DNA of 64,000 nucleotides, from the NCBI RefSeq assembly GCF_000248075.1, contig NZ_BAFB01000065.1, positions 1 to 64,000 on the forward strand, in the 5' to 3' direction. This DNA is from Gordonia otitidis NBRC 100426 (lineage in GTDB: Bacteria > Actinomycetota > Actinomycetes > Mycobacteriales > Mycobacteriaceae). The translations under genes were made by a program, and so were the position numbers. Shown in pieces: positions 8,273 to 33,729 of this stretch (position 1 is its first letter; each line of letters opens with the position of its first letter). The notes beneath the pieces were generated by a model. It was given only the letters and a program-made list of their open reading frames with translations. It did not search any database and was not told the origin of the DNA.

Positions 8273-8302
8273 CCGCCGATCTCTCGAAGGAGGTACGACG
8301 CA

Positions 8303-9964: not shown

Positions 9965-10037
9965 ATCGACACCCGCGGACGTCCCATCAGCGGCATGTCA
10001 CGTCGGTGTTGTCGGTACCCGGTGGAAGAATGGCGCG

Positions 10038-11646: not shown

Positions 11647-11650
11647 TCGG

Positions 11651-12085: not shown

Positions 12086-12115
12086 AACCGCCGAACATCC
12101 GAGCTCGGACAACGG

Positions 12116-12145
12116 TGCGAGGTCAGGGAGTGCGAGGTCAGGGAG
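12116..12145. repeat. Two direct copies of a 15-bp unit between convergent genes
   Basis: The 15-base unit beginning TGCGAGGTCA occurs twice head to tail, directly before the zur stop codon at 12146. Just upstream, at 12098-12109, is the perfect 12-base palindrome TCCGAGCTCGGA. The region separates convergent genes and may help termination, but there is no T-run. Confidence 0.6.
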
Positions 12146-13056: not shown

Positions 13057-13263
13057 TCCATCTTATGGGAAGTGGTTGTCATTTGTGATCGGCGCCCCGA
13101 GGTGTAGTGCCGCCGTGCGTCCTGATCGTCGACGCTCCAGGTGTCCAGCGCTCGACGGGGCCCCTCAGGCGTCGTGGGGCGACGGCTACGCTGTAGGGGT
13201 TGCCGGTCGAGTGCCGGTGAGATGCTCGTGACCTGTCCCAACGTCCGTGGAGAAACGATCCCT

Positions 13264-14667: not shown

Positions 14668-14827
14668 CAACAGGCTCGACCGACATGTCGTCTGATCCGT
14701 CGTCGCGGGCGGTGACCGTCCGTCGTTGACTGGGCTTGACCTGCGGTGGTCTGTCACAATTGAGAAGAGTTGCCTTACGTGATCGGACACGGGGTCTGAG
14801 CAGGCGGCGAGGAGAGTGAGTGGAGTC

Positions 14828-15301
14828 GTGGCGGTCACCGGGAAAGTCGTGCATTACGACACGAACAGGGGATTCGGCTTTCTGGCCCCCGAGTCGGGTG
14901 GGGCCGACGTGTTCCTGCACATCAACGACATCGACATCGACGAGGACTCGCTGAAGCCGGGTGCCAAGGTCTCGTTCGACATCGAGGAGACAGACCGGGG
15001 AGCCAAAGCGGTCAACGTTGCGGTGACCGAGGAAGCACCCGCCGACGAGTCCGGGTCGTCGCGTCCGCATCGCCGTGACTCACACGACCACCACGGCCGT
15101 TCGCATGGCGCGGATCGATCGCATGGAACCGACCGGCGTCGGCCGCGCGGCAACGGCGGCTCATTGGACGCCGCAGCATTCACCGAGGAGATCACCGAGG
15201 TGCTCCTCGACGCCTCGGGCGATTTGACCGCCAAGCAGATCGTCGCCATCCGGCAGCGGGTCACCGACTTCGCGGTCGGCCGGGGCTGGGTGCTTGACTA
15301 G
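14828..15301 (+). CDS. Cold-shock-domain protein with C-terminal extension
   Basis: Probable RNA/DNA-binding protein of about 157 residues. The first 65 residues form a cold-shock domain with RNP1 (RGFGFL) and RNP2 (VFLHIN). A basic, His/Arg/Asp-rich linker (about residues 75-110) joins it to an alpha-helical C-terminal domain of about 45 residues that is not part of ordinary CspA. The GTG at 14828 gives the usual CSD N-terminus ([10 protein letters not shown]); an in-frame GTG at 14816 lies too close to GAGGAG to be preferred. It overlaps the start of the dGTPase gene by eight bases. Confidence 0.85.
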
Positions 15302-16601
15302 TACCCCGCTCACGGGTCGGACCGGCATCCCTCCGACAGCCGAATACGGCGAGGAGGCCATCGAGCGCATCGTCCGTGAGGGCGCCAAGACCGCCAGCCT
15401 GCCCGGTACGAGGACCGACCACCGAAGCGAGTACGCACGCGATCGCGCGCGCGTACTCCACTCGGCTGCGCTGCGTCGCCTCGCCGACAAGACACAGGTT
15501 GTCGGACCCCGCGAGGGCGACACCCCGCGCACGCGGCTCACGCATTCGCTCGAGGTGGGGCAGATAGGTCGGGGAATCGCGATCGGTCTCGGTTGTGAAC
15601 CCGACCTCGTCGAACTCGCCGGTCTGGCCCACGACATCGGGCATCCCCCATACGGTCACAACGGCGAACGCGCGCTCAACGAGGTAGCCGCGGACATCGG
15701 CGGATTCGAGGGCAACGCACAGAACCTTCGCATCCTGACCCGGCTCGAGCCCAAACTCCTCGACGCCGACGGGGCGTCCGCGGGTTTGAACCTGACCCGT
15801 GCGTCATTGGACGCCACGCTGAAATACCCCTGGCTGCGACGGCCGCCTGCTCGCAAGTTCGGCGCATACGACGACGACGCGGCCACGCTTGCGTGGGTTC
15901 GCCAGGGTGCGCCTGGTGATCGTCAGTGCATCGAGGCCCAGGTCATGGACTGGTCAGACGATGTCGCCTACTCCGTTCACGACCTCGAGGACGGGGTGAT
16001 CGCCAATCGAATCGATCTGCGGTCTCTCGGCGACCCCGACGACCAGCGGACTCTGGCCGCGATCGGCGTCGCGGAGTTCCCCGAACTCGAGCCGGAGCCG
16101 CTGATCGACGCTGCCGGGAGGTTGTCCCGTATGGATATCGTGCGGGCTGTCGGGGTGTTCGATGGGAGCCTGGACGCGTCGGTCCGGTTGAAACGCCTCA
16201 CCAGCGAACTCATCGGGAGGTTCGCGTCGGCGGCGATCACCGGTACCCGCGAGCACGTGGGCGGTAGATCCCTCTCCCGGTACGACGCCGACTTGACTGT
16301 GCCACCGCTGATCGCCGCCGAGGTCGCGATACTCAAGACTCTTGCTCTGCGGTTCATCTTCTCCAACGAGCGACACAAGTCGCACCAAGCCCGTCAGCGC
16401 GAACGCATTCATCGTGTTGCCGGCTGGCTGACAGTTGCGGCGCCGGGAGGACTCGATCCGATCTTCGTGCCCACGTGGCAGGCCGCGGAAACGGATGCCG
16501 CACGACTGCGCGTCGTCGTCGACCAGATCGCATCGATGACCGAAGGCCGCCTCGAACGGATGGACAAGCAGAACTCCGGCGCTCAGGCGCATCTGGGCTG
16601 A
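15294..16601 (+). CDS. dgt: Deoxyguanosinetriphosphate triphosphohydrolase-like protein (Dgt)
   Basis: HD-domain nucleotide hydrolase expected to remove triphosphate from dNTPs. The motifs [32 protein letters not shown] and [17 protein letters not shown] supply the metal-binding His/Asp set of the dGTPase family. The 435-residue length is normal. Translation appears to start at a TTG (15294) overlapping the previous gene. dnaG lies downstream beyond two inserted genes; dgt-dnaG linkage is common in Actinobacteria. Confidence 0.9.
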
Positions 16602-23074: not shown

Positions 23075-23147
23075 TCCCCCATAGCTCAATTGGCAGAGCA
23101 TTCGACTGTTAATCGAACGGTTACTGGTTCGAGTCCAGTTGGGGGAG
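23075..23147 (+). tRNA. tRNA-Asn (GTT)
   Basis: Complete 73-base cloverleaf: acceptor TCCCCCA pairs with TGGGGGA, with discriminator G at 23147. The anticodon GTT is at 23108-23110 and the T loop is TTCGAGT. The last 25 bases, from the T arm to the discriminator, are duplicated at 33704-33728. The gene is the attachment site of the 10.6-kb element, which leaves it intact. Confidence 0.96.
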
Positions 23148-23148
23148 C
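23123..23148 (+). repeat. attL: 26-bp core in tRNA-Asn 3' end
   Basis: Begins ACTGGTTCGAGTCC and ends GGGGGAGC; identical to 33704-33729. The flanks differ (TT before, TT after, against AA before, AG after in attR), so the match is exactly 26 bases. Confidence 0.93.
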
Positions 23149-23150
23149 TT

Positions 23151-23179
23151 AAAAACCGCCTGGTCACAGGCGGTTTTTT
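23151..23179 (+). terminator. Rho-independent terminator just inside attL
   Basis: AAAAACCGCCT and AGGCGGTTTTTT pair as a perfect stem around the loop GGTCAC, followed by T-rich sequence. It lies on the element side of the crossover and now terminates tRNA-Asn. The reverse complement is also a good terminator. Confidence 0.85.
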
Positions 23180-23299
23180 GCTTTCAAGGGTGTAGTACGT
23201 GCAACTAGCGTGCAATACGCGGCTCGGTGTGGAAACAGATCGGCCCCGGTTGGTGCTTCCCACACCTTCCAGGGCCTCGACTCACCGGAGGCAATTCCG

Positions 23300-23416
23300 A
23301 TGCATCGTCATCACACCTTAGCTGCTGACTGCGTCACGATCATCGTGACGCTGGCCCTCTACTTCGTCCCCCTCGCTGTTCTGCGACTCTGCATGGATCT
23401 GGGGTGGCACGCATGA
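23300..23416 (+). CDS. Small single-pass membrane protein (38 aa)
   Basis: Very short frame with a good ribosome site (GGAGG, 8 bases upstream). It encodes MHRHHTLAADC followed by a hydrophobic segment (VTIIVTLALYFVPLAVL). The stop overlaps the next start (ATGA), suggesting coupled translation with the 155-residue gene. Function unknown; it is at the attL end of the element, where cargo genes are expected. Confidence 0.5.
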   Translation: MHRHHTLAADCVTIIVTLALYFVPLAVLRLCMDLGWHA

Positions 23417-23880
23417 GCCTCACAGTTGTCGCAGTTCGACGCTCGGAACCATCGGATCTGTCCCAGTTCGGCATCACCGTCAAGCAACGCAACGAGTCGC
23501 CGACCTACACGGCTGAGGACGGCGTCGTGTGGAAGTCTGCGTGCCTTATCTACGTCTGGGACGACGGGCGGATGACGGTAGTTGTGTTGACGGCGCTCAC
23601 TGAGCGGGAACTCGGTGTCGTGTACGGACTCGCAGAAGACGTGTTCAGTGCCGGCGTCGCGAAATGCAAATACGAGAAGTGGACGCGGCTGCGGAAGACC
23701 AATCGGCGTCGCATCGGCGGGTACCGGGTTCACTACTACGTGCGTGCCGACGACGCTGATCCCCATAAGAAGTGGATGTCGGCGGCGATGGGCGACGAGC
23801 CAGAGAAGCTGTTGAGCACGTTGAAGGAGTCGGTTGACACCGAGGTCTCCGAGCAAGACCGGGGCACTGTGCAGCACTGA
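23413..23880 (+). CDS. Hypothetical protein, element cargo (155 aa)
   Basis: Unrecognised soluble protein with a hydrophobic beta-rich core (ACLIYVWDDGRMTVVVLTAL) and a basic middle (KWTRLRKTNRRRIGGYRVHY). It has no membrane segment and no known catalytic motif. Translation is probably coupled to the small membrane protein in front. It lies on the + strand, opposite to the element's main operon, in the position of the forward-strand genes at the end of phiRv1. A role in host benefit or phage interference is only a guess. Confidence 0.7.
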   Translation: MSLTVVAVRRSEPSDLSQFGITVKQRNESPTYTAEDGVVWKSACLIYVWDDGRMTVVVLTALTERELGVVYGLAEDVFSAGVAKCKYEKWTRLRKTNRRRIGGYRVHYYVRADDADPHKKWMSAAMGDEPEKLLSTLKESVDTEVSEQDRGTVQH

Positions 23881-24409
23881 GTGCTCAGCACGGGGCTGCT
23901 CTTCACCAACAAGTGGATAAGAGCAGACCGACCTGACGACTACGCCGCAACCGTGGGCGTCATGTACACGGTTGGCCCCGCGCGGTGCTCATCACCGCGA
24001 CTGCATGGCGAATTTCACCACGCAGCTACCTCCTAACGCCCTGACGGGTTCAACCGTTGTGCTCATCTCAACGGTTGCCGGGTTCGACTCCCGGCAAGGG
24101 CACTCAGCGCACGCAACCACTCCAACCGCGTGCCCGTCGTCATCGACCCAGCCCGACGAAAACCAGCGGTCAGCACGTAGCCCAGTCCCTCACCGTGCTT
24201 GAGGGCCACCAGTCCCGACCTCGCGAACCGAGACCCGGTGCCATGACGATCACACCTGCCCATCGGGCACGGTGCTAGGAGTCGTGGCCGGACGCGATAG
24301 GGGCATGGTTGTCGTGGGTCGAACGGGATGGGGTTCAACGCGCGGCCACCCGTAGGGTGTCGATACAAACGGTAGCTGCATTGAGAGTTTCCCAACGCAG
24401 GCCCACGAC
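23881..24409. other. Non-coding stretch with tRNA-like fragment and twin hairpins
   Basis: No credible gene. At 23981-23999 a 7-bp perfect hairpin has the loop CTCAT. At 24051-24077 a 9-bp perfect hairpin (CAACCGTTG/CAACGGTTG) has the loop TGCTCATCT. Both present the motif GCTCATC. The second runs straight into a T-arm-like hairpin (CCGGG-TTCGACT-CCCGG, 24078-24094) and an acceptor-like CAAGGGCA. This looks like the 3' half of a tRNA with a long variable arm, but no matching 5' half is seen. Confidence 0.5.
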
Positions 24410-24586
24410 CTACTCCGAAGCCCTGAACGTGACATAGGCATCGCAGGACGTGATGAAACAACTCGGGCCACTCGTCTGCTCCAAATACGGCAGACCATCC
24501 GAGCCATTCACCCGAATGTGCTTGAGCTTCTCCGGCTCGCCACACGCCGCGCAATCGTTTCCAGTCAGTTCAAACCACGAGGCCAT
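24410..24586 (-). CDS. Possible small zinc-finger-like protein (58 aa)
   Basis: Frame starting MASWFELTGNDCAACGEPEK with later cysteines (GPSCFITSCDAY), giving two CxxC-type groups, so it may bind zinc. A GTG start at 24628 would add 14 residues. No strong ribosome site is seen. Composition is protein-like, but the call is uncertain. Confidence 0.4.
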   Translation of the reverse strand: MASWFELTGNDCAACGEPEKLKHIRVNGSDGLPYLEQTSGPSCFITSCDAYVTFRASE

Positions 24587-24718
24587 AAACGGACAATAGC
24601 CCCAAAATATCGAGACCGGGGGAACCACCTGACTGGCCGAGGTAGTCAGATTTCTCTCTCCCCCGGAGAAAATGCCCTAGGAAGAGGTCTGCCGGGTAAT
24701 GCCGGGGCCATAGAATCC

Positions 24719-25279
24719 GTGACCGTGAACCTATGGCAGGTTGTCCCAGTAGCAGCGCTCGTCTCGACGGTTGTAACGCTCGTACTCCGATGGTTCGACC
24801 GGCCTAGACCAGTAATCCGCCTCGAGGGTCGGCTCGTAAGCGACGCGCGCCTCGGCTCTGGCTTCAACGGCAGATATTGGCCTGCCCCCTGCACCCTAAT
24901 GAACATTGGCGACGGCGATGCCTACGACGTCAGACTTTTCGGATCGAACTGCGATCCAGGCGTTGAAACGGAAGGTGGACACTGGGCGTACTCCATGCCT
25001 GTCATTCACTCAGGTAGCACGGTCAGAATCCACCTAGGGCTTCCAGAAACATGGAGCGAGGCCGACGCTTCCGTCATTGTGACCTGGGCGCCACGGCCTG
25101 GCAGGTGGTTTCGTCGGCGTTCTACTTTTCCTATCCAGAACCTTCCAGTCGAGGAACTGCTTCCACCAGGCGCGTTGCCCATCGTGCAGATCCCGCACCG
25201 CGCGCGCTCAACGCGAGCACTCGAGGCACGCTCCATCCGTGCGCAACGCCAGAATGCGAGCCGAGAAGCCGATCAGTAG
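24719..25279 (+). CDS. Membrane-anchored hypothetical protein, element cargo (186 aa)
   Basis: Starts (GTG 24719; 24725 also possible) with a single N-terminal membrane segment (VVPVAALVSTVVTLVLRW). A beta-rich domain of about 130 residues follows (CTLMNIGDGDAYDVRLFGS; STVRIHLGLPETW) that looks immunoglobulin-like, then a basic Arg/Ala tail. No enzyme motif is visible. It is the last gene at the attL end before the capsid operon arriving from the other strand. Function unknown; surface exclusion would fit the topology but is not shown. Confidence 0.6.
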   Translation: MTVNLWQVVPVAALVSTVVTLVLRWFDRPRPVIRLEGRLVSDARLGSGFNGRYWPAPCTLMNIGDGDAYDVRLFGSNCDPGVETEGGHWAYSMPVIHSGSTVRIHLGLPETWSEADASVIVTWAPRPGRWFRRRSTFPIQNLPVEELLPPGALPIVQIPHRARSTRALEARSIRAQRQNASREADQ

Positions 25280-25320
25280 CCAGCCCCGGGCCATCGGAGC
25301 CGAAACCGCTGTGACCTGCG

Positions 25321-25354
25321 AAAAATAAAAAACCTGACTTACCTCGGCAGTCAG
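25321..25354 (-). terminator. Terminator of the leftward capsid operon
   Basis: Read on the minus strand, CTGACT and AGTCAG form a 6-bp stem, followed by a 13-base T-rich run (GTTTTTTATTTTT). It lies about 220 bases past the last capsid-operon stop. The rest of 25280-25575 shows no gene. Confidence 0.65.
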
Positions 25355-25575
25355 CGGTGTGTGGGGGTGTCGGATATTTCTGGGGTGCCGGGATGGGTAG
25401 ACCCCCGCTCGCCCGTGGTGGGTTTGCGGGGGTCTGGTGTCGGCGCGCTGGTCGGTCTGTGAGCCTGGAAAGTCCACTGGTGGGGACGGGGGCTCTCGCG
25501 GCCATGCATTCCCGGTCGGCTGGAACTGGAGCGTTACGGCCTTGGGTGAGTTTGACGCGCCGAACGTTGTGGGGG

Positions 25576-26058
25576 TTACCGGAACCAGGTTGCGGCGTCG
25601 GTCAGGTCGTCGGTGTCGGCGGAGTGCCCGATCTCGGTTCGGGGGACGGCGGTCTCGTCGGGGACTGACGCGAGGACGTCGGCCATGCCTGGGTCTGCGG
25701 TGATGAGTGTGACCCAGTGGTCACGTCGGGCGGGGGTGATCTTGCCCGCTCGGATCGCGTCGTTGACCTGGCCGTCGATCTTTGCTTTCGCGGCTGCGGC
25801 TTTGACCTGTCGGCCTTCGGCGGCTTCGGTGCGGAGCGCGGCGAGGCTGTGGCTGTCGATGACTTCCATGCCGATGCGCTTCGCTGCGGCGGCGACCGCG
25901 GAGGGCTTGGTGTCCTTGCTGTCGGTGTTGGCGGCTTGCTTGGCGAGGTCGTCGATGACGGCGAGGATTGCGTCGACGTCGGTGGGGTTGGTGTCGGCGG
26001 GCAGCCCGAGCAGTTCGAACAGTTGGCTGGTCTGGTCGTCGGTGAATGTCAGTGCCAT
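25576..26058 (-). CDS. Capsid scaffold-like protein (Mu I C-terminal-like)
   Basis: A 160-residue, helix-rich, highly charged protein. Its second half (QVNDAIRAGKITPARRDHWV) resembles the C-terminal scaffold part of Mu protein I and related phage protease/scaffold proteins (pattern AGKLTPAQR). The ATG at 26058 is preceded by AAAGGAG; the open frame further upstream is spurious. It is the last gene of the operon, after the capsid gene, which is the reverse of the usual scaffold-before-capsid order. Scaffold is a pattern-based inference; another capsid accessory is possible. Confidence 0.7.
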   Translation of the reverse strand: MALTFTDDQTSQLFELLGLPADTNPTDVDAILAVIDDLAKQAANTDSKDTKPSAVAAAAKRIGMEVIDSHSLAALRTEAAEGRQVKAAAAKAKIDGQVNDAIRAGKITPARRDHWVTLITADPGMADVLASVPDETAVPRTEIGHSADTDDLTDAATWFR

Positions 26059-26069
26059 GATCGTCTCCT

Positions 26070-26945
26070 TTATCCGGCGAGGCCGGTGATCTTCTTGGCG
26101 GCGTAGGGGCGGTCGACGGCGAACGCGGGCACACAGTAGGCCTGCACCCACGTGGAGCGCGTCGAGCGGTCGTCCCACTTGTCGACGGTCAGTGGGGCTT
26201 CGAATCCGACCGTGCCCACGGAACCGGCCTGCACTGCCCACCCGGTTCCGGCAGCGACGCGCGGGTTGGCGAACAGCGTCACGCCTGCACTCTTGAGCAT
26301 GGCGTCGAGTCCGTCACCGTAGGCGACGCGCAGGCTGTGCGCTTCGTTCGGGTGTACGACCAGCAGGTCGTGGGTGACGCCGAGTTCCTCGAGGTCTGCG
26401 GCCAACTGTGCGGCTGACAGGTCAGCGGTCGGTCGGGAGCCGGATGGGGTGAGTTGGGTTTCGGGTCCGACGAGCACGAGGTCTGACCAGTCGTGTCCGG
26501 TGACGGCTTCGATGGTGGCGTCGGCAATGGCGCCCATCGCGGCGACGTCGAGTTTCCGGGCAATCGTGTTCGACAGCTGCGTGGTCTGCTGGTCTAGGTA
26601 GCTGACATCGTTGCGGCTGATCTGTTCGTCGGTGATCTGGAACTTGCCGCCCCAGTCCTCGACGACGGCGAGCTTGGGTTCGGGGTCGACACCCTCAACC
26701 ACCCGGTATTCGTTGCCGGGGGAACGCTTCTCGACGTCAGTGGAGTAGAAGTCGGACGCCTGCACCACCGAATAGAGCATGCCGCCCCCGGTGACAGGTG
26801 CGCCGAGGTTGGAGAAAAACTTCGGCAGCAACAGTTGTTCGTCGGCGAGCTTGGCGATCTGGTTGCGGATGAGGTTGGGCTGTTTGAGTGCGACATCGAC
26901 GGTCAGTCGACGCCCGGTCAGTTCGGGGATCAAAGCGTTGGGCAT
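26070..26945 (-). CDS. Phage major capsid protein (HK97-fold)
   Basis: A 291-residue major head protein. Features shared with small actinophage and Mu-type capsid proteins are an N-terminal helical arm (RNQIAKLADEQLLLPKFFS), an E-loop/P-domain transition, EDWGGKFQITDEQISRND, and a C-terminal A-domain ending in a strand. No N-terminal delta domain is apparent, in keeping with a separate scaffold gene. It lies between the cement gene (13 bases) and the scaffold-like gene (11 bases). This is the strongest evidence that the element encodes a particle of its own. Confidence 0.85.
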   Translation of the reverse strand: MPNALIPELTGRRLTVDVALKQPNLIRNQIAKLADEQLLLPKFFSNLGAPVTGGGMLYSVVQASDFYSTDVEKRSPGNEYRVVEGVDPEPKLAVVEDWGGKFQITDEQISRNDVSYLDQQTTQLSNTIARKLDVAAMGAIADATIEAVTGHDWSDLVLVGPETQLTPSGSRPTADLSAAQLAADLEELGVTHDLLVVHPNEAHSLRVAYGDGLDAMLKSAGVTLFANPRVAAGTGWAVQAGSVGTVGFEAPLTVDKWDDRSTRSTWVQAYCVPAFAVDRPYAAKKITGLAG

Positions 26946-26958
26946 GGGTCAGTTCCTC

Positions 26959-27336
26959 TCAGAGAAGCGCGATTTCGGCGTCGGAGTTGTTGGTGGCGGC
27001 GGTGACGGCGTAGCCGACGACCTTGCCGCTGGTGGCGGTGATGACGCGGCCCGCGGTGCCGACCTCGACGTCCGCGCCTGCGGCGATCGCTGCTCCTGCG
27101 GTGACTTTGACAACGCCGTCACGTGCGACACCGACGAGCTCTCCGTTGTTGGCGTCGTGCTTGGCGACACCGAATGTGCGGGCACCTGCGGCGGCGGGTG
27201 CCACTGCAAGGTTGCCGTCCGCGGTGCGGTTGCCTGAGATTGCGACGAATCGGCGTGCGGTGATGGCGGCGGTCGCCTGGGCGGTGACATCACCACCGGG
27301 CGCGTACACGCGCGGGTTGGGAATAGAGGTCGACAT
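26959..27336 (-). CDS. Capsid cement/decoration protein (DUF2190-like)
   Basis: A 125-residue protein with the repeating Gly/Ala/Val beta pattern of DUF2190 capsid cement proteins: VYAPGGDVTAQATAAITARR, RTFGVAKHDANNGELVGVA and GAAIAAGADVEVGTAGRVI. These small proteins trimerise on the outside of HK97-type heads. The ATG at 27336 lies one base after the protease stop and has GGAAGGTG upstream. Confidence 0.8.
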   Translation of the reverse strand: MSTSIPNPRVYAPGGDVTAQATAAITARRFVAISGNRTADGNLAVAPAAAGARTFGVAKHDANNGELVGVARDGVVKVTAGAAIAAGADVEVGTAGRVITATSGKVVGYAVTAATNNSDAEIALL

Positions 27337-27337
27337 G

Positions 27338-27895
27338 TTAGAGCACCTTCCGTTGGTTGCGGCGACGTCGAGCCGCGGCGATGAGAATGGTTGTGCGGTA
27401 ACCGGTGTCGGGCCATCCGGCACCAGTGGTTGTGAGGGCGACGCGTTTGCGGGCTGACGCGACCACCAGATCCTGTAGCGAATCAAGGGACGTGATGGCG
27501 GGTGCGGCTTCGCCGAGCAGCGCGAGGCCGGTCAAAGCCAGCGGCCACACCGTGCCAGCACCGTCCTGAAAGTCGTAGGCAGCTTCCACGGAACGGTCCG
27601 GGTAGTGCAGTGGTGCGGCGTCGGCCAACCATGCCGGCATCACGAGATCACCGACCAGAGCGTCGCCGTTGTTGGTTGTGCGTAGTTTGTCGACGAAGCC
27701 GAAACTGGGTGTGCCGTCGAATCGTTCGTCGGTGTGGCCGAGTTTGATCGGGGGTTTGCGTACGGCTCCCGCTGTGAATGCGTCGATCATGGCGGCGATG
27801 TCGGCGCGGGTCACTGTCCACGGTCCGGTGGAAGCTTCCCAGGTGCCTACCTTCACCAACTCGACGCCGGTGATGCGTTTTTCAGCCACGGTCAC
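27338..27895 (-). CDS. Phage head maturation protease (Mu I-like N-terminal domain)
   Basis: A 185-residue protein with the pattern of Mu-I-type capsid proteases: KPPIKLGHTDERFDGTPSFG, then LVGDLVMPAWLADAAPLHYP and RSVEAAYDF. It lacks the scaffold extension usually fused to these proteases. The GTG at 27895 overlaps the preceding stop (GTGA). Expected to trim capsid or scaffold protein during head assembly. The exact catalytic residues cannot be assigned with confidence from sequence alone. Confidence 0.78.
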   Translation of the reverse strand: MTVAEKRITGVELVKVGTWEASTGPWTVTRADIAAMIDAFTAGAVRKPPIKLGHTDERFDGTPSFGFVDKLRTTNNGDALVGDLVMPAWLADAAPLHYPDRSVEAAYDFQDGAGTVWPLALTGLALLGEAAPAITSLDSLQDLVVASARKRVALTTTGAGWPDTGYRTTILIAAARRRRNQRKVL

Positions 27896-28290
27896 CCCTG
27901 TCGCTCGGCGCGGGCGACCACCGCTGCCGCTGGATATAGCCACCGCCCACCGGAACGTACAGCAGGGAGCCGACCGCGGCGCGCGAGGTCTCGGACGTTG
28001 CCGGGGGTGCATCCGAGGATGTTTGCGGCGCGTTCGGTGTCGACGAACTCATAGGCAGACAATGCGTCACGATCCGCCGAATCCTTTGCGCCACTGACGT
28101 ACCCGCTAGTGGTAGAGCGTGTCGCGTCAGAACTCGCGCGAGAAAGGCGGCGTTCGAGGTCGACCAGCCGAGGCGACGGACGTGAACCTTGCTTGGCCTC
28201 GAGTAGTGCGGCGAGTAGTTTCATCGCGCGTGCGAGGTAGTCGGCGTCGGCGGCATCGAGCAGCACACCGGAGACCTTCTCAATCGTCAT
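27892..28290 (-). CDS. Helix-turn-helix protein of the capsid operon (132 aa)
   Basis: A helical N-terminal half is followed by a C-terminal MerR/excisionase-like HTH (DTERAANILGCTPGNVRDLA then RRGRLPAVRSGGRWLYP). It lies immediately before the protease, where satellites and phages often carry a small terminase subunit or packaging adaptor. A small-terminase-like DNA-recognition role is possible, but regulator is equally plausible. It overlaps the previous gene by 11 bases and the protease by four. Confidence 0.7.
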   Translation of the reverse strand: MTIEKVSGVLLDAADADYLARAMKLLAALLEAKQGSRPSPRLVDLERRLSRASSDATRSTTSGYVSGAKDSADRDALSAYEFVDTERAANILGCTPGNVRDLARRGRLPAVRSGGRWLYPAAAVVARAERQG

Positions 28291-28555
28291 CAGACACCCC
28301 ATAGAGCACCGCGAGCCGATCCTGTAGCTGTGTGGGTTCCTCACCGTTGCGAGGCAGGCGAGACAGCGCCCAGAAAAGGGTGATGTTGACATCAACGGCG
28401 CTCGCCTGCTCGGTGACCCACAGATCGGTGATCGCGGCGTTGAAACCGTGATTGTCGGCGCGGTATCCGTGCAGCACCGCGCCGATCACCGCACGCTCGA
28501 TGCGCAGGCTACGGCGTACAGCCGTCACGTCCTGGTCGGGGAATTGGTCAGTCAT
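28280..28555 (-). CDS. Hypothetical protein, element operon (91 aa)
   Basis: A short helical protein beginning MTDQFPDQDV, with RRSLRIERAVIGAVLHGYRA and FWALSRLPRNGEEPTQLQDR. No recognised domain. The start overlaps the preceding stop (ATGA). It is well placed in the coupled operon, so it is likely a real gene. Confidence 0.65.
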   Translation of the reverse strand: MTDQFPDQDVTAVRRSLRIERAVIGAVLHGYRADNHGFNAAITDLWVTEQASAVDVNITLFWALSRLPRNGEEPTQLQDRLAVLYGVSDDD

Positions 28556-28731
28556 GCTTGTCTCCTGAGTTCGTCGAGTGCAGCGGCCAGGACGGTCGCG
28601 AGTTCGTATGCTTCCTCTGTGGTCATCCCGTACCGGTCGGGTCCGATCGCAAGGCAGATCGGGCGGGAGTCGTCTGCTGGCGATGACGTGACGATGACTG
28701 TGGCGGGACCGGTCCGCCCGTAGCGCTTCAC
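28552..28731 (-). CDS. Small hypothetical protein, element operon (59 aa)
   Basis: A 59-residue frame fitting exactly between whiB-like and the 91-residue gene, with GTGA at its start and ATGA at its end. It reads VKRYGRTGPATVIVTSSPAD, then GPDRYGMTTEEAYELATVLA. The amphipathic C-terminal helix and perfect fit support a real gene. Function unknown. Confidence 0.65.
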   Translation of the reverse strand: MKRYGRTGPATVIVTSSPADDSRPICLAIGPDRYGMTTEEAYELATVLAAALDELRRQA

Positions 28732-29027
28732 GCGACGCTCCGTGGTCGACCGGGAAGGCGTGGCACCTGGGCTGCGAGCACAGAGCCGTCAGTGCGCCGC
28801 TGTGCCGCCCAGTCCCGACAGCGATCGAGGGCCGGACAGCGGTGGCACAACGCTTCGGCGTTCGCGTGTCGGTACCGGGTGTCGGCGGCGTCCTCGTACG
28901 GGGCAGGAGGATCGAACAACTCCGGCGAGCCGACGCACGCGGCACCCGACAGGTCTGCGGTGCCGCGCAGTATCGCCTCGAGCAGATCAACCACGCCGCC
29001 CTCACGACGAGACACGTTGCGGCTCAT
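28728..29027 (-). CDS. WhiB-like iron-sulfur transcription factor (phage type)
   Basis: A 99-residue protein with the four-cysteine WhiB pattern: C31 in GAACVGSPELFDPP, and C61, C64 and C70 in LCHRCPALDRCRDWA. These should bind a 4Fe-4S cluster and contact the primary sigma factor. The G[VI]W beta-turn normal in host WhiB proteins is replaced by DGSVLAAQ, so sigma binding or DNA contact may differ. Mycobacteriophage TM4 encodes a WhiB that interferes with host WhiB2; a similar role here is inference. It overlaps both neighbours by four bases. Confidence 0.85.
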   Translation of the reverse strand: MSRNVSRREGGVVDLLEAILRGTADLSGAACVGSPELFDPPAPYEDAADTRYRHANAEALCHRCPALDRCRDWAAQRRTDGSVLAAQVPRLPGRPRSVA

Positions 29028-29434
29028 ATCGCCTCCAGCGGTCCGTATAGCTCGACACGCATAGTTGCCGCTGCGTCGTCGACATACACGCGGTAGTGGC
29101 CGCGGTCGGGTGTGCCGGGGTCACGCAACCTCCGATCGGTGAAGAGGAGTCGTTCGCCGCGTTGCTCGACGACGGCCGCGAACACATGCGAGATGTGAAT
29201 GCCGCCGTCGACGACCTCGGTGGCTCGGATTGGTCTGCCATCGGAGTAGTGGGTGAACTCGAAGGTGGCTCGGTGCAGATTGGCGACCGTCTCGGCGAGC
29301 GCATCGGTCTCGAACTGGTGGTCGTCGCAGACGCCGTGATCGCTGAGGGTGTCAATCACCCACGAGAAACAATCTGTCGTCTCGAGCGCGGCGTAAATCA
29401 ACACGTCGGTCTCGCGGTTTGGGGATTGGCTCAT
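29024..29434 (-). CDS. Hypothetical protein, element operon (136 aa)
   Basis: Starts MSQSPNRETDVLIYAALE with GAAGGAGA upstream; the longer frame is disregarded. An alpha/beta protein with a His-rich middle (LHRATFEFTHYSDGRPIRA) and a beta-rich C-terminus (RGHYRVYVDDAAATMRVELY). No family recognised. It overlaps WhiB-like by four bases (ATGA). Confidence 0.7.
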   Translation of the reverse strand: MSQSPNRETDVLIYAALETTDCFSWVIDTLSDHGVCDDHQFETDALAETVANLHRATFEFTHYSDGRPIRATEVVDGGIHISHVFAAVVEQRGERLLFTDRRLRDPGTPDRGHYRVYVDDAAATMRVELYGPLEAI

Positions 29435-29640
29435 CAGTGTGTCTCCTTCGTTGGGAAGTGGAATGGTCGTCGAATGCGGGCGCGTTGCACGGAGCCTCGA
29501 GGCCAGGCGATGGGCACGCATGTCAGGTGCTGGCCGCGCTCGATGTCCTCGTCGAAACTCATCGGGAACCGGCAGGCGCCACAGAGGGGGAGCCTCCGAG
29601 AGTTGTCCCAAACATGTAGGTAGGGGCGGGTAGGAGTCAC
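29434..29640 (-). CDS. Small Cys-containing protein, element operon (68 aa)
   Basis: GTG start overlapping the ATPase stop (GTGA), and stop overlapping the next start (TGATG). It contains LCGACRFPMSFDEDIERGQH followed by a third Cys, so it may bind zinc. The exact fit in the coupled operon argues that it is translated. Function unknown. Confidence 0.55.
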   Translation of the reverse strand: MTPTRPYLHVWDNSRRLPLCGACRFPMSFDEDIERGQHLTCVPIAWPRGSVQRARIRRPFHFPTKETH

Positions 29641-30881
29641 CTGGAATCACCGCTCTTTCCAGTAGTCCTACGCGCAGGTACTGACTTCTTTGGCACTACT
29701 AGGGCCTCGGGCGCGATGTCGTCGGCGAGGTAGTAGCGCCACACTGTGCGGATGTCTCCCTGCGGTTCCTCTTCGCACGTCAACACTCCGAGCATGTGCA
29801 GCGCCTGTAACTGTCGGTCGACGGTGTTGCGTGGCTTGTCGATACGCTTCCGTACCTCGGTCGTCGATGAGCCGGGATGCGCTGCGATGTCGTCGACTAT
29901 CGCCAGGCGCAGCGGAGGCATCGAGTCGCGCGCGCACCGGATCGCCAGCCGCAAGGCATGCTGGCGGTCCATTCCGAGCGCGACCGCGCCGCGCATCACC
30001 TGTGCGAGTTGCTTGGCGAAGCGGGTGGGCATCTCGGGCGCGTGTGCGTCGATGACGTCGCCGCGGTAGTCGAACTCGACACCCGTGCGTGCGAGCGTCA
30101 CCAGATCGGCAGCGGCGAGCACCTTGTCGGTCTCGTCCTCGGTGAGTGCGACGCCGACGAGATCTCGTCGCAGAAGCGCAGCCACAACATCAGCGAGGTC
30201 ACCGCGCATCGCAGCCTCGTGGCCGGTGTTGCCGATAGCCTGCCTGCCGGCCTTCTGGCGACCAGAACGGGAATCCATGCGCACCAGCACGAACCGGTCA
30301 CCCATCGACGCGATGGCCGCGTGCGCCTTGTCCCAGGCGGTCGTGACGGCTCCGACGACAACGATGCGGCCATGCCAGTCGAGCGTGCGGCCACCATCAG
30401 AACCGACGTTTCGCGACCAGTGGCCGTCGTAGACCTCGCGCAGCGCGGCGAGCACCTCGGCGCGAGCGTCCTTGTTCATCGAAAGAATGCTCGTGACGTC
30501 CTTGATGACCAGTACGCCGCGGTCACCGATCTTGCGCAGGAGTCCGCCCGTCGCGTCCTTGGCGCGGTCCTTCTGTGCGGTCGCCGATAACAGGGCACCT
30601 GGTGATGAGACTGTCGATGTGACGATTGCTCCGGCACCGGCGAGCGCCTGGGCTGTCTCGGTCTTGGCGTTGCCTGAACCGGAGATCAGTAGCAACCAGA
30701 GCGGGTCTCCGTCGAGTTGCTCGACAGCCGCAGCAGCGAGCACCGCGTCGAGCGCGTCGGTGTCGTAATCGTCACCGAGCCAGTCGGTGAACGCCGCGTG
30801 GACGTCAGCGAGAGTCGCTGTCTGACAGGGTAATCCGTTCTCGTCTAGTTCGGGCGCGTCGTAGAAATTGGGCACGCTCAT
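29637..30881 (-). CDS. AAA-type P-loop ATPase with C-terminal winged helix, element replication/partner candidate
   Basis: A 414-residue protein, the largest in the element. A P-loop variant ISGSGNAKTET lies at residues 66-76, with Ala in place of the usual Gly before Lys. A Walker B-like strand (GVLVIKDVTSI) is at about 120-130, with arginine-rich segments after it. The C-terminal 100 residues contain a winged helix (STTEVRKRIDKPRNTVDRQL). It occupies the place of Rv1582c in phiRv1. A replication-initiation or helicase-loading role is inferred. It overlaps both neighbours by four bases. Confidence 0.75.
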   Translation of the reverse strand: MSVPNFYDAPELDENGLPCQTATLADVHAAFTDWLGDDYDTDALDAVLAAAAVEQLDGDPLWLLLISGSGNAKTETAQALAGAGAIVTSTVSSPGALLSATAQKDRAKDATGGLLRKIGDRGVLVIKDVTSILSMNKDARAEVLAALREVYDGHWSRNVGSDGGRTLDWHGRIVVVGAVTTAWDKAHAAIASMGDRFVLVRMDSRSGRQKAGRQAIGNTGHEAAMRGDLADVVAALLRRDLVGVALTEDETDKVLAAADLVTLARTGVEFDYRGDVIDAHAPEMPTRFAKQLAQVMRGAVALGMDRQHALRLAIRCARDSMPPLRLAIVDDIAAHPGSSTTEVRKRIDKPRNTVDRQLQALHMLGVLTCEEEPQGDIRTVWRYYLADDIAPEALVVPKKSVPARRTTGKSGDSR

Positions 30882-31162
30882 GTGATCACCCGCTCAACGA
30901 AAGCGCCGGAACGAATTGCGGCGTCACGGTCACGGAGCCGCTTGGCGACGGCATTCCAGTCCGCAGCCTGCGAGATCGCCAGGGCCGCGTCTTTCATCGC
31001 ATTCCGATTGTCCTCCAGTGCGTCGAGCTCTTGCTCAAGACAGCCACGGACACCCGCAGTCAGCAACGCACAGAACATCGCCCGGTCGACGCCCTCGGGC
31101 AGTTCGACGTCGATGAGCTTGTATCGAAGATTGTTTGCGCGCTCATAAGTCAGTGACGTCAT
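30878..31162 (-). CDS. Hypothetical helical protein, element operon (94 aa)
   Basis: Begins MTSLTYERANNLRYKLIDVE and is nearly all helix (CLEQELDALEDNRNAMKDAA). No recognised domain. Four-base overlaps at both ends place it in the coupled operon before the ATPase. Confidence 0.68.
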   Translation of the reverse strand: MTSLTYERANNLRYKLIDVELPEGVDRAMFCALLTAGVRGCLEQELDALEDNRNAMKDAALAISQAADWNAVAKRLRDRDAAIRSGAFVERVIT

Positions 31163-31410
31163 GCGTCACCGTCCTTGCTCCGGCACACCGGGCCACGATG
31201 CAACGCAACGGATTTCGGAGCTACGAGCCACGACCCGCACGACGTGCACTGCACGGCAGGCCGATAGCCGAGTTCGACGACGACAGACACGGCAGCAACT
31301 TCGGAGCGTTCCTCGGTGGTGAGAGGTTCGCTATACTCGAGGAAGTCGCGCACCCACTCGACTGCTTGAGATTCCCCGGCTCGCCCGCCGGGGTTTTTCT
31401 TTGCAATCAT
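31159..31410 (-). CDS. Small zinc-finger-like protein, element operon (83 aa)
   Basis: Starts MIAKKNPGGRAGESQAVEWV. The C-terminal third has CTSCGSWLVAPKS then RGPVC, a three-Cys plus His (SVALHRG) pattern that could bind zinc. The ATG at 31410 overlaps the upstream stop (ATGA); the longer frame is disregarded. Function unknown. Confidence 0.66.
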   Translation of the reverse strand: MIAKKNPGGRAGESQAVEWVRDFLEYSEPLTTEERSEVAAVSVVVELGYRPAVQCTSCGSWLVAPKSVALHRGPVCRSKDGDA

Positions 31411-31622
31411 TCGACATCGCCGCCGATTGCGTCGTGGTCGACGTCGACGAGACCGAGGTCCGCGTGATCGGCCTGGGGTCGCTCGTAGTCGCACTCGACC
31501 TCATACATGTGATGGGCGGCGCGGATGGAATTGACCAGACGCTCAGCTGAATTCGATCCGGCAGGGGCAACGAGAGTGCGTTGCGCTGCTTGCCACTCGG
31601 CATCTTCGCGATAGTCGCTCAT
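31407..31622 (-). CDS. Hypothetical acidic protein, element operon (71 aa)
   Basis: Begins MSDYREDAEWQAAQRTLVAP; the C-terminal half is Asp/His-rich (RPQADHADLGLVDVDHDAIG). No recognised domain. ATGA overlaps join it to the excisionase before it and the zinc-finger-like gene after it. Confidence 0.65.
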   Translation of the reverse strand: MSDYREDAEWQAAQRTLVAPAGSNSAERLVNSIRAAHHMYEVECDYERPQADHADLGLVDVDHDAIGGDVE

Positions 31623-31819
31623 GCTGCACCGCCAAACGGCCGCATAGCTCCGTCGATCTCATTCAGGTCGACGCGAACTAGGCGCTTTCCGTTGCGGTAT
31701 CCCGTAATTCGGCCATCGGCGATCATCTGCCGGATGGTGCGATCGGTAACGCCGAGGTATTCCGCCGCCTCTGTCAGCTTTGCATAGCGACGTTGGCCAC
31801 GTGGAGAGTGATTTGACAT
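31619..31819 (-). CDS. xis: Excisionase / MerR-type HTH protein
   Basis: A 66-residue protein consisting of one winged HTH (KLTEAAEYLGVTDRTIRQMI then ADGRITGYRNGKRLVRVDL), the pattern of actinobacterial excisionases such as the one in phiRv2 (Rv2657c). Expected to bend attachment DNA and direct the integrase towards excision. It could also regulate the operon it heads. It sits 109 bases downstream of the integrase-linked gene; that gap should contain the operon promoter. Confidence 0.8.
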   Translation of the reverse strand: MSNHSPRGQRRYAKLTEAAEYLGVTDRTIRQMIADGRITGYRNGKRLVRVDLNEIDGAMRPFGGAA

Positions 31820-31896
31820 TTGCGCTCCGGGCAGGTTGAAGTGCCCGAACTCGCATTCGGTCGTGAAGGCTGACTTCCGAAGATGTCGCGAAAGCC

Positions 31897-31902
31897 ACTA
31901 TA
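31897..31902 (-). promoter_or_regulatory. Possible -10 element of the xis-to-capsid operon
   Basis: On the minus strand TATAGT lies about 78 bases before the xis ATG in an AT-richer stretch. No clear -35 is visible, so an activator could be needed. Confidence 0.25.
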
Positions 31903-31927
31903 ACACCGTGAGCTTCCGTCTAGGGAA

Positions 31928-32374
31928 CTATCGCCCTTTTGGGTTCATCAGTTGGCGCCTCAGTTTAAGGGCGTGTCTGAGGGCATCGAGTGTGATGTGA
32001 ACGCTTTTGTCGTTGCTCGTCATCACAAGCGTTGCTACGGCCTCTCGAAAACCCCTGCCGCATGGGTTCGGCTGGTTTTCGCTCTCCGACCATTGGCAAA
32101 GCATGGCGAATACCTCCAGGAGAGAGTGTTCGTCCGCAGAGACGGAGTTTCGACACCTGCATGCTGTTTCAAGATGCACACGCGTCGGTTCGCCGTGCGC
32201 TGCCGTTGACCAGAGATCAGAATTGCCGAGTAGGAGCCTCTGTCGAGTAGTGGAGTTCCGCGTTGGTACCCATTGCGCTTGACTCTCAACCCACCTGAAT
32301 CGCTGCACCACATCGAAGTCTTTCTTGCGGCCATGGTCACAGCGGATCACGATGTCCCTTCGGCTGCGGTCCAT
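31928..32374 (-). CDS. Hypothetical protein between integrase and excisionase (148 aa)
   Basis: A strong ribosome site (GGAGGGG) and an ATG at 32374, two bases after the integrase stop, define this gene. It starts MDRSRRDIVIRCDHGRKKDF, has Trp-containing beta regions, and ends in a helix (TLDALRHALKLRRQLMNPKG). No family recognised. By position, in satellites and phages, an immunity repressor or integration regulator is expected here, but no HTH is obvious. Base composition is less GC-rich than that of host genes. Confidence 0.65.
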   Translation of the reverse strand: MDRSRRDIVIRCDHGRKKDFDVVQRFRWVESQAQWVPTRNSTTRQRLLLGNSDLWSTAAHGEPTRVHLETACRCRNSVSADEHSLLEVFAMLCQWSESENQPNPCGRGFREAVATLVMTSNDKSVHITLDALRHALKLRRQLMNPKGR

Positions 32375-32376
32375 GT

Positions 32377-33552
32377 TCACCCCTCCGTATCCACTAGATT
32401 GGACAATGCCTCCGCGATTCTGCGGTCGCGTCCTTTCGCGGCGTGCTGGTAGCGCATTGCTGCCGCTACCGTCGAATGCCCAAGGCGTGCCTGTAGTTCC
32501 GCCAGGGTGGCACCGGTTGCAGCCGCGAGGACGGCACCGGTGTGCCTCAAGTCGTGGAACCGAAGGTCGCTGCGCTTCGCAGCGTCGCGTGCTGGATAGA
32601 AGTAGCTGTAAAGCGTTGTGGGAGTGAGATACCCGCCTTCCGGAGCAGGAAAGAGCAGTGCATCCTGCTTCGGCCCAGTGTGCTCGTTGAGGTGGGTCTC
32701 GACTGCTCCAAGCACATGCGGGGGAACGTGGACGGTTCGGGTACCAGCTTCGGACTTCGCCGAGTCTTGGGCAACGTAGGCGCTCTTCTCGGCATCCCAA
32801 ACGGCGCCGCGGGTCACCGACACCGCGCCGGCCATAAGGCGTCGTTCACCCGTGTCCTCGTCCGCCTCGTACTCGAGCGTGACGTCGCGGCGTCTAATTT
32901 CGATGAGTTCACCGAAGCGCAGCGCGCACCAGGCGGCCAACAACGTCATGAGCTGGTAGCGCGCAGGCATCGCGTTGACGATGGTCTGGAGCTCGTCGAT
33001 GGTGGCCGGGACCGTGCGCGATCGACGTCGTGACGATCCCGCGCCTTCGACGCGACAAGGATTCGCTGTGATCAGTTCGGCGTTGTAGGCGCTCGTCATG
33101 ATGGTGCGCAGGAGTGAGTAGGCGTGTGCGCGCATGGTCGGGGCGTCTGGGAGTAGTTGGTCGTGCCACTTGCGGACGTCGGCAGGCGTTATCTCGTCGA
33201 GGCGCTTGGCCTTGAACGTTGGCAGCACATGGAGGTCGAGCAGGCTGCGGTAGTGGTCGCGGGTGCGGATCTTCAAAGGGCGGCCACGCACTAGGCGCGT
33301 ACGTAGCCAGTCGTCGGCGTAAGGCTCGAACATCGGTGACTCTGCCTGGTCTGCGGTGGCGGGGTTCCAGAGCCCGCGATCGATCTCTCGGCGACGGTCG
33401 GTGAGCCAAGCTTCGGCGTCGACCTTCGCGGCGAACGTGTGCGGAGCGGTGTGCTTGGCACCATCGGGGCCGGTGTAGTGGGCTTGATGGCGACCACTGG
33501 GAAGCTTGCGAATTGCCCCGAACTCGCGTCGCTGTCGTCTCGGCTTCGCCAT
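32377..33552 (-). CDS. int: Tyrosine recombinase/integrase
   Basis: A 391-residue phage integrase. An arm-binding N-terminal region with RREFGAIRKLPSGRHQAHY is followed by the core-binding SAM-like domain (about 75-160). The catalytic domain carries Arg in LRFGELIEI, the HxxR box in RFHDLRHTG, a second His in ARLGHSTVAA and the Tyr nucleophile in AMRYQH. The start is taken at MAKPRRQ (33552). Its gene ends 152 bases inside attR and is transcribed away from it, the standard int-att arrangement. Related to the phiRv2 integrase type by architecture. Confidence 0.94.
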   Translation of the reverse strand: MAKPRRQRREFGAIRKLPSGRHQAHYTGPDGAKHTAPHTFAAKVDAEAWLTDRRREIDRGLWNPATADQAESPMFEPYADDWLRTRLVRGRPLKIRTRDHYRSLLDLHVLPTFKAKRLDEITPADVRKWHDQLLPDAPTMRAHAYSLLRTIMTSAYNAELITANPCRVEGAGSSRRRSRTVPATIDELQTIVNAMPARYQLMTLLAAWCALRFGELIEIRRRDVTLEYEADEDTGERRLMAGAVSVTRGAVWDAEKSAYVAQDSAKSEAGTRTVHVPPHVLGAVETHLNEHTGPKQDALLFPAPEGGYLTPTTLYSYFYPARDAAKRSDLRFHDLRHTGAVLAAATGATLAELQARLGHSTVAAAMRYQHAAKGRDRRIAEALSNLVDTEG

Positions 33553-33703
33553 CCCGCCCCTTGTTCTCGTGCAACAATCGTGCAATAAGAACTTACATCA
33601 CGTTCCGCTTGCCTCCGCAGTTTTCCACATGTACTGTCAGCCATGACCGCAGGTAAAGACCTAATTCCTGAGGTCACCCCTACAAAAGCATCACACCGGG
33701 CAA

Positions 33704-33729
33704 ACTGGTTCGAGTCCAGTTGGGGGAGC
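33704..33729 (+). repeat. attR: 26-bp copy of the tRNA-Asn 3' end
   Basis: Identical to 23123-23148. The bases upstream bear no tRNA structure, so this is only the duplicated att core. The 118 bases between the int ATG-side end and the core contain no gene. Confidence 0.93.

What the first reader, a model, noticed from the sequence alone, without database searches (positions are those of the whole stretch)
23123..33729. Capsid-bearing satellite-like element in tRNA-Asn
A 10.6-kb element with exact 26-bp att repeats, an integrase, an excisionase, an ATPase, WhiB-like and a four-gene head set, but no portal, terminase, tail or lysis genes. This is too small for a phage and too complete to be random decay. 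It looks like a live phiRv1/phiRv2-type capsid-forming satellite that borrows packaging and tails from a helper, a group little described outside mycobacteria.
Basis: partly seen in the sequence, partly recalled or inferred. Interest (0 to 1): 0.85.

Follow-up and report, generated by a model that had tools for sequence, protein, structure and literature searches.

The report
Portal-less capsid satellite with phage-type cos
A 10.6-kb mobile element in a Gordonia tRNA-Asn gene carries its own shell genes but no recognisable portal, terminase or tail genes, and has a phage-type DNA packaging site, so it most likely spreads by being packaged with a helper phage's machinery; about two dozen related loci share this plan.

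Summary
In detail: exact 26-bp att repeats, tyrosine integrase, excisionase, AAA-type protein, WhiB, and protease, cement, capsid and scaffold genes, with no portal, large terminase or tail gene found. Simple decay is unlikely: the genes compared are under purifying selection, and nearly the same body sits in G. aichiensis (two inferred copies beside different serine recombinases, empty tRNA-Asn site) although host dnaG is far more diverged.

Comparison adds: (1) in 27 of 27 phage loci the protease-scaffold gene is fused and upstream of the capsid gene; in 25 of 25 loci without terminase or portal the scaffold is downstream, separate in 23. (2) Satellite capsids form two groups plus one exception. 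(3) Sixteen of 17 bounded elements span 9.6-10.9 kb; one spans 12.7 kb. (4) In 12 of the 16 a dyad-plus-T-tract site follows the scaffold gene; the same motif spans the DNA ends of Gordonia phages Schnabeltier, MagicMan and Easley.

Best reading: a satellite that builds its own shell and borrows a helper's portal, terminase and tail through a helper-type cos. Mobilisation is not shown and no helper was found. Candidate Mycobacterium PICIs (integrase + capsid) are published, so this is a new variant of a known kind.

The parts
23075..23148 (+). tRNA-Asn(GTT), integration target; its 3' end is one att copy
23123..23148 (+). att repeat copy 1 (26 bp)
33704..33729 (+). att repeat copy 2 (26 bp)
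23413..23880 (+). 155-aa protein of unknown function, left end; identical in one G. aichiensis copy
24628..24650 (+). second cos-like dyad with TC tract, opposite orientation to the head operon
25313..25564 (-). cos region; cos-like dyad at 25333-25355 followed by T tract; region 92.5% identical over 255 bp to satellite L038
25576..26058 (-). scaffold (homologous to C-terminal part of phage protease-scaffold fusion), separate gene downstream of capsid gene
26070..26945 (-). major capsid protein (PF25209 / phrog_1650)
26959..27336 (-). cement/decoration protein (PF09956 / phrog_673)
27338..27895 (-). head maturation protease, N-terminal part only
27892..28290 (-). helical N-part plus C-terminal MerR/Xis-type winged helix-turn-helix; sits just upstream of the protease, where phages carry TerS-TerL-portal
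28280..28555 (-). 91-aa protein, conserved in several satellites
28552..28731 (-). 59-aa protein
28728..29027 (-). WhiB-like protein
29024..29521 (-). small protein of unknown function (start uncertain)
29637..30881 (-). 414-aa AAA-type protein with C-terminal HTH, replication module (inferred)
30878..31162 (-). DUF2742 protein
31159..31410 (-). DUF6011 protein
31407..31622 (-). 71-aa protein; similarity to the G. aichiensis copies ends inside it on the right
31619..31819 (-). excisionase-like HTH_17 protein
32377..33552 (-). tyrosine integrase, 391 aa, open frame

Best explanation
It is an integrated satellite of a tailed phage. Int and Xis move it in and out of tRNA-Asn. Its AAA-type protein is its replication module (inferred). 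It makes its own shell from its own capsid, cement, protease and detached scaffold, giving small heads that suit about 10 kb (inferred from the narrow size range). No portal, large terminase or tail gene was found, so it must take these from a helper of a related capsid lineage; the helper's terminase would recognise the satellite's cos-like site after the scaffold gene and cut unit-length DNA into satellite heads built on the helper's portal (inferred). Shown: gene content, order, size, selection, transfer between species and the cos-like site. Inferred: helper dependence, small heads, portal sharing, packaging at that site.
For: att and genes. No portal/TerL in the window element or, by profiles of the lineage's own TerL and portal, in the 25 loci (window included) that carry capsid and downstream scaffold; the largest other proteins of relatives are replication proteins, one unknown family, or without hit. 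Scaffold fused and upstream in 27 of 27 phage loci, downstream in 25 of 25 loci without TerL/portal. MCP tree of 55 rows: 2 label changes, 18.5 in shuffles; the window's clade of 18 satellite rows has support 97/83. Lengths of 16 elements 9,583-10,860, mean 10,183, SD 406. Cos-like motif: 12 of 16 satellites, same strand, after the scaffold gene; 10 of 23 phage loci, each once, 266-580 bp upstream of TerL, no hit elsewhere in their 420,331 bp; 0 in 192,226 bp of flanks; 10 in 3,268,500 bp simulated; physical ends of 3 of 8 phages fit. dN/dS 0.06-0.21 for 9 genes, two more genes identical; dS in MCP 0.11 against host dnaG 0.87. Empty tRNA-Asn site in G. aichiensis.
Against: No excised circle, particle or helper was seen. 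No helper prophage of this capsid lineage in the own genome: scaffold and capsid searches hit only the element and portal family PF04860 is absent. The exact cos core was not found in IMG/VR (first site only), and among 401 family genomes only in the element and its G. aichiensis copy. By the fixed rule 4 of 16 satellites and 13 of 23 phage loci lack the motif (one of the 13 is Schnabeltier, whose site is split by the record ends), and 4 of 8 phage records have other ends. A dyad with a T tract also resembles an intrinsic terminator. One bounded relative (L018) is 12.7 kb, outside the narrow range, with an extra tape-measure-like gene. A capsid set without a portal is unusual: portals normally start head assembly (recalled).
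Confidence: 0.7

Rival explanations
1. Shell genes act against the helper: the element's capsid and scaffold co-assemble with helper capsid protein and redirect or poison helper heads (as SaPI and PLE size-determining proteins do), and the element's DNA travels in mixed heads or not at all.
For: The capsid is homologous to those of phages (45% to Schnabeltier); a detached scaffold is the kind of part that can reset head size; no portal of its own found.
Against: The whole shell set (capsid, cement, protease, scaffold) is kept and, where it differs, under purifying selection, more than a size-redirector needs; the satellite capsids form long-lived groups. 45% identity makes mixed shells less likely.
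Confidence: 0.13
2. The dyad plus T tract after the scaffold gene is only the transcription terminator of the head operon; packaging uses another site or headful packaging.
For: Structure and place are those of an intrinsic terminator; 4 of 16 satellites lack it by the fixed rule.
Against: The same dyad spans the physical DNA ends of Schnabeltier, MagicMan and Easley; in phage loci it occurs only upstream of TerL, not after other operons; 0 hits in 192,226 bp of flanks.
Confidence: 0.12
3. Decaying prophage remnant that happens to keep head genes.
For: No portal, terminase, tail or lysis genes found; some relatives (L038, L132, L102) show shortened scaffold or protease.
Against: Same plan in 25 loci, 2 label changes on the capsid tree, 16 of 17 bounded elements 9.6-10.9 kb, dN/dS 0.06-0.21, transfer between species with different recombinases.
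Confidence: 0.05

Closest known systems
Candidate PICIs of Mycobacterium with integrase and major capsid gene, including phiRv1/phiRv2 (PMC10654092; passages seen, supplements not)
   Same: Integrated; tyrosine integrase at tRNA genes or serine integrase elsewhere; capsid gene; replication genes; some with scaffold or terminase genes. The M. gordonae and M. kyorinense elements found here may be among them (not checked).
   Different: In that paper's text the whole words portal, helper and cos do not occur, and the passages seen say nothing of a moved scaffold or a narrow size. Here the host is Gordonia and the capsid family PF25209.
Capsid-forming PICIs (Alqurainy et al. 2023, recalled; described in PMC10690885, passages seen)
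   Same: Own capsid and head protease; borrow tails.
   Different: cf-PICIs carry portal, connectors, both terminase subunits and HNH; none of these was found in this element.
SaPI-type and cos-type PICIs (described in PMC10690885, passages seen)
   Different: Those remodel the helper's capsid; this element brings its own capsid protein.
Streptomyces satellites MulchRoom and MiniFlayer (PMC10690885, passages seen)
   Same: Actinobacterial satellites with own capsid; MulchRoom's tail is thought to be the helper's.
   Different: They carry terminase and portal, have direct terminal repeats and virulent helpers.
Gordonia phage Schnabeltier and relatives
   Same: Homologous protease, cement, capsid and scaffold; cos-like DNA ends.
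   Different: 46.9-kb phage with TerS, TerL, portal and tail genes; protease-scaffold fused and upstream of capsid.

Membership tests
Capsid-forming PICI (cf-PICI) | Own major capsid and head protease | tested here: met
Capsid-forming PICI (cf-PICI) | Own portal, connectors, TerS, TerL, HNH | tested here: not met
   definition from PMC10690885
Capsid-forming PICI (cf-PICI) | Takes tails from helper, mobilised in particles | not testable with these tools
   no experiment
Candidate PICI as used for Mycobacterium (PMC10654092) | Integration machinery plus major capsid gene in a phage-like region | tested here: met
   definition
phiRv1/phiRv2-type element | About 10 kb, integrase, capsid, protease, no portal or tail (recalled layout) | tested here: met
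phiRv1/phiRv2-type element | Homologous capsid module | not tested
   phiRv proteins were not fetched; window capsid is PF25209, phiRv capsid recalled as PF05065
phiRv1/phiRv2-type element | DUF2742 protein (link to phiRv recalled; none of the 14 control genomes rang) | tested here: met
cos-type PICI | Helper-type cos in the element | tested here: inconclusive
   cos-like motif present; cutting not shown; no helper with the exact core found
Defective prophage | Broken genes or relaxed selection | tested here: not met
   open frames; dN/dS 0.06-0.21 for the 9 genes that differ, of 11 compared

The most novel reading that the evidence does not exclude
A widespread class of satellites in Gordonia, Mycobacterium, Rhodococcus and relatives assembles its own small shell (about 10 kb, perhaps T=3) on a portal supplied by another virus, with the scaffold cut loose from the protease and moved behind the capsid gene as the size switch; cos sites and integration modules are exchanged like cartridges, and the window's element carries two cos-like sites of two tract classes in opposite directions, letting it use two kinds of helper.
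Probability: 0.3. Interest if true: 0.82.

Novelty: new variant of a known kind. Interest (0 to 1): 0.62.

Why it matters
The portal normally starts head assembly and defines the packaging vertex. A satellite lineage that keeps its shell genes but has no portal would show that a shell can be built on a foreign portal, and gives natural variants to ask what sets head size. PMC10654092 reports PICI-like elements as prevalent in slow-growing mycobacteria and says that induction and transduction remain to be determined; a recognisable cos offers a way to propose helpers from sequence. It also suggests how about 10 kb of DNA moves between Gordonia species.

Tried and rejected
HTH protein as small terminase: a weak PHROGs link (phrog_57, E 9e-5, through the HTH; the excisionase has E 1e-5 to the same family) did not hold. 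hhalign against nine phage TerS gave probability 0.3; the fold search gave BldC, RacA and Xis-type domains, best E 0.022, none at or below 0.001; BLASTP against the HTH protein that Schnabeltier carries beside HNH and cos gave no alignment. It stays a DNA-binding protein of unknown role.

Helper in the own genome: none of this capsid lineage. Helper by cos: exact core of the first site not found in IMG/VR; both cores in 401 family genomes only in the element and its G. aichiensis copy (L038 has the core one base off and so does not match). blastn of the cos region against phages gave one chance hit.

The DNA search with the Schnabeltier-type core (up to 3 mismatches) and with the strict dyad gave no window match: the window's first dyad has an 11-base loop and one changed arm base. 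My looser rule (one substitution per arm, loop 6-16, T or TC tract) was fixed after seeing examples, partly from satellites; the controls use the same rule.

The 414-aa ATPase as marker: found in 2 of 59 Gordonia genomes and 8 of 401 family genomes, mostly in other kinds of elements, so replication modules are exchanged and do not define the group.

One origin of all satellite capsids is neither shown nor rejected (AU p 0.103).

Rows dropped: L020 and L023 duplicate L098 and L018 and were left out of the tree and of the 27/25 count; short loci L003-L016 and L048-L085 were replaced by longer stretches. Weak scaffold hits whose stretches (L118, L123, L125, L127, L129, L133, L134, L136) gave no usable capsid-scaffold pair were not counted; L041-L043 (capsid, no scaffold match) and L135 (scaffold and portal, no capsid match) were not counted either. 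L041-L043 were labelled phage by hand in the tree. The 25 loci are not independent: L017 is a near copy of the window, and L094/L095 and L128/L130 are close pairs. The 25 satellite rows of the tree are not the same 25 loci (L037 in, L092 out). PHROGs/Pfam scan of relatives: 87 of 136 unlabelled proteins (those of at least 130 aa outside the window), and only the top 25 families of 102 and of 39 were shown.
Full report
WHAT IS THERE. The element runs exactly between two 26-bp repeats, 23123-23148 (3' end of tRNA-Asn) and 33704-33729, unit 10,581 bp. On the minus strand, from right to left: tyrosine integrase, excisionase-like protein, 71-aa protein, DUF6011, DUF2742, AAA-type 414-aa protein, a small protein, WhiB, two small proteins, a protein with C-terminal HTH, protease, cement, capsid, scaffold; then about 1.7 kb of mostly non-coding DNA and a 155-aa protein on the plus strand. 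None of the 18 ORFs scanned matched a portal, large terminase or lysis family; the one tail-family match is chance level.

SPLIT AND MOVED SCAFFOLD. The protease protein matches only the first third of phage head protease (phrog_3894 positions 5-155 of 458), and the last head gene matches the C-terminal part (324-437 of 458; phrog_2976 240-378 of 394). I fetched stretches around relatives found by capsid, scaffold and ATPase searches, called genes with a codon-based script, and searched them with profiles of the lineage's own TerL, portal, protease, scaffold, capsid and cement. Among loci with both capsid and scaffold matches: 27 of 27 with TerL or portal have scaffold fused to protease and upstream of capsid; 25 of 25 without TerL and portal have scaffold downstream, 23 as a separate gene and 2 (L117, L126) still fused. 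Some of the 25 are on short contigs or contig ends (for example L017, L021, L092, L097, L128), where absence of TerL/portal is weaker; the att-bounded ones do not have this weakness.

BOUNDED SET. For 21 loci I looked for exact repeats of at least 15 bp, 7-16 kb apart around the capsid gene. I accepted sixteen pairs: 14 overlap a tRNA (window included; that of L096 is only 15 bp), and L095 and L098 have repeats beside the integrase at the end of a protein gene. Start-to-start lengths: 9,583-10,860, mean 10,183, SD 406. Five gave none that I accepted at first (L018, L037, L117, L130, L132). One of them must be told: L018 (Mycobacterium gordonae) has an 18-bp pair at the end of a protein gene next to its integrase, which on second look is as good as those of L095 and L098 and gives 12,737 bp; it holds an extra tape-measure-like gene of 3.6 kb. 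L130 had a 16-bp pair 12.7 kb apart that does not enclose its integrase. So 16 of 17 lie between 9.6 and 10.9 kb. The listed phages with this capsid type are 40-56 kb. A shell of about T=3 would fit this ratio if the phages are T=7; that is inference, not computed.

NO HIDDEN PORTAL FOUND. Of 136 unlabelled proteins of at least 90 aa in the 16 elements, 87 (at least 130 aa, window excluded) were scanned: integrases, regulators, primase/helicase families, head-tail connector families in three, but no portal or terminase among the 25 families shown of 102 (PHROGs) and of 39 (Pfam). Ten of the largest were read one by one: seven replication proteins, one unknown family, two (L036 399 aa, L100 392 aa) without hit; L100's has no Pfam hit either, and one more (L102) is DUF3631.

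TREE. Fifty-five capsid rows (25 satellite, 30 phage): two label changes against 18.5 in shuffles; the window lies in a clade of 18 satellite rows (97/83); six further satellites form a second clade (100/99), and L101 sits with phages. One origin is not rejected (p 0.103). So satellite capsids look like old lineages, not repeated fresh decay.

TRANSFER. The body is 94.6% identical over 6.04 kb and 99.5% over 752 bp to a 7,424-bp contig of G. aichiensis NBRC 108223, while host dnaG is 84-85%. Synonymous divergence is uneven: cement and a 59-aa gene 0, capsid 0.11, scaffold 0.18, ATPase 0.22, WhiB 0.30, one small gene 0.58; dnaG 0.87. dN/dS is 0.06-0.21 for the nine genes that differ. In G. aichiensis four contig ends meet the two ends of that contig to within two bases (window positions 24095/24097 and 31424/31425-31426), two on each side, so I infer two copies with a collapsed body. 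Near each right-hand end lies a different serine recombinase gene (PF00239 + PF07508), not the tyrosine integrase; that these genes belong to the copies is inferred. One left end lies beside an FtsK/SpoIIIE-family gene. The G. aichiensis tRNA-Asn is empty: the window's right flank follows it collinearly (window 33883 is 154 bp after the att, its counterpart 168 bp after the tRNA) with nothing large between. In another genus (L093) a relative with 66% integrase and 78% capsid identity uses the same tRNA-Asn, 10,336 bp.

COS. The 255 bp after the window's scaffold gene are 92.5% identical to the same place in satellite L038, whose capsid is 43% identical. They end in a dyad with T tract, GCTGAC-TGCCGAGGTAA-GTCAGG-TTTTTTATTTTT, minus strand at 25333-25355. 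The DNA of phages Schnabeltier and MagicMan (close kin of each other) ends ..CCTGACCGCCGCGGTA and starts GTCAGG followed by a T tract; Easley ..CCTGACTGCCAAGGGGA / GTCAGGAAGTTTTTTTT; Rem711 is partly alike; GMA4, MalagasyRose, Juicebox and Poushou differ (eight phages that I picked from the 154 records). With one rule for all: 12 of 16 satellites have a same-strand intergenic hit 41-1503 bp after the scaffold gene (14 hits in the 16 elements, 163,425 bp); L094, L099, L102, L120 have none (L094 has a weaker one). Nine further loci gave hits in L130 (2), L128, L017 (opposite strand; its same-strand site deviates) and one coding hit in L117, probably chance; none in L018, L021, L092, L097, L132. 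Flanks: 0 in 192,226 bp; simulated DNA: 10 in 3,268,500 bp, i.e. 0.5 expected against 14. In 23 phage loci with TerL and portal (420,331 bp), 10 have exactly one hit, same strand, 266-580 bp upstream of TerL, and none elsewhere; 13 have none, Schnabeltier among them because the record ends split its site. The window also has a second dyad with TC tract on the plus strand at 24628-24650, conserved in G. aichiensis; L130 likewise has two in opposite directions. Phage loci show both tract types.

HOW IT WOULD WORK. Excision (Xis, Int), replication by its own module, late expression of the shell genes, helper portal and terminase bind the satellite's cos, unit-length DNA of about 10.6 kb fills small satellite heads, helper tails attach. 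All these steps are inferred from anatomy and known families; none was seen.

KNOWN WORK. PMC10654092 (passages) reports candidate PICIs with integrase and capsid in Mycobacterium, phiRv1/2 among them, says that induction and transduction remain to be determined, and has no occurrence of the whole words portal, helper or cos. PMC10690885 (passages) describes cf-PICIs and the Streptomyces satellites. PMC10023795 (passages) says small actinobacterial elements may be satellites and that experiments lag. Searches, as listed, showed no paper whose title or abstract start describes portal-less capsid satellites with cos, within the held library; most subscription papers are not held, and the SatelliteFinder paper could not be read.

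Noticed in passing
G000:C33 (L189) 7412-16260: A second satellite-like element in the same genome: tyrosine integrase at tRNA-Ser, 27-bp repeats 8,822 bp apart, DUF2742, DUF3631 protein, WhiB 76% identical to the window element's, and a PF05065 capsid; no cos-like hit by a relaxed rule.
   Followed up: partly
L018 11949-15569: The Mycobacterium gordonae relative (12.7 kb by its 18-bp repeats) carries, soon after its head genes, a 1,206-aa protein matching a tape measure family (PF20155, above cut-off); a satellite with its own tail-length ruler would be unusual.
   Followed up: partly
window 24050-24110: A stretch that to the eye resembles the 3' half of a tRNA (T-arm and acceptor end), not called by ARAGORN or Rfam; the G. 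aichiensis body contig breaks inside it.
   Followed up: partly
L037, L038, L132: Satellites with long capsid branches, no protease match and, in L038 and L132, a shortened scaffold (66-82 aa); perhaps decaying or changed in function (L037 ends near its contig end). Their grouping is unsure.
   Followed up: no
L086-L091, L025, L031: Homologues of the element's ATPase lie mostly in longer open frames (445-856 codons for the six other-genus hits, 50-74% identity) in other kinds of elements and phages.
   Followed up: no
L039, L099, L021: Some satellites have an HNH-like gene after the scaffold gene, as phages have beside cos.
   Followed up: no
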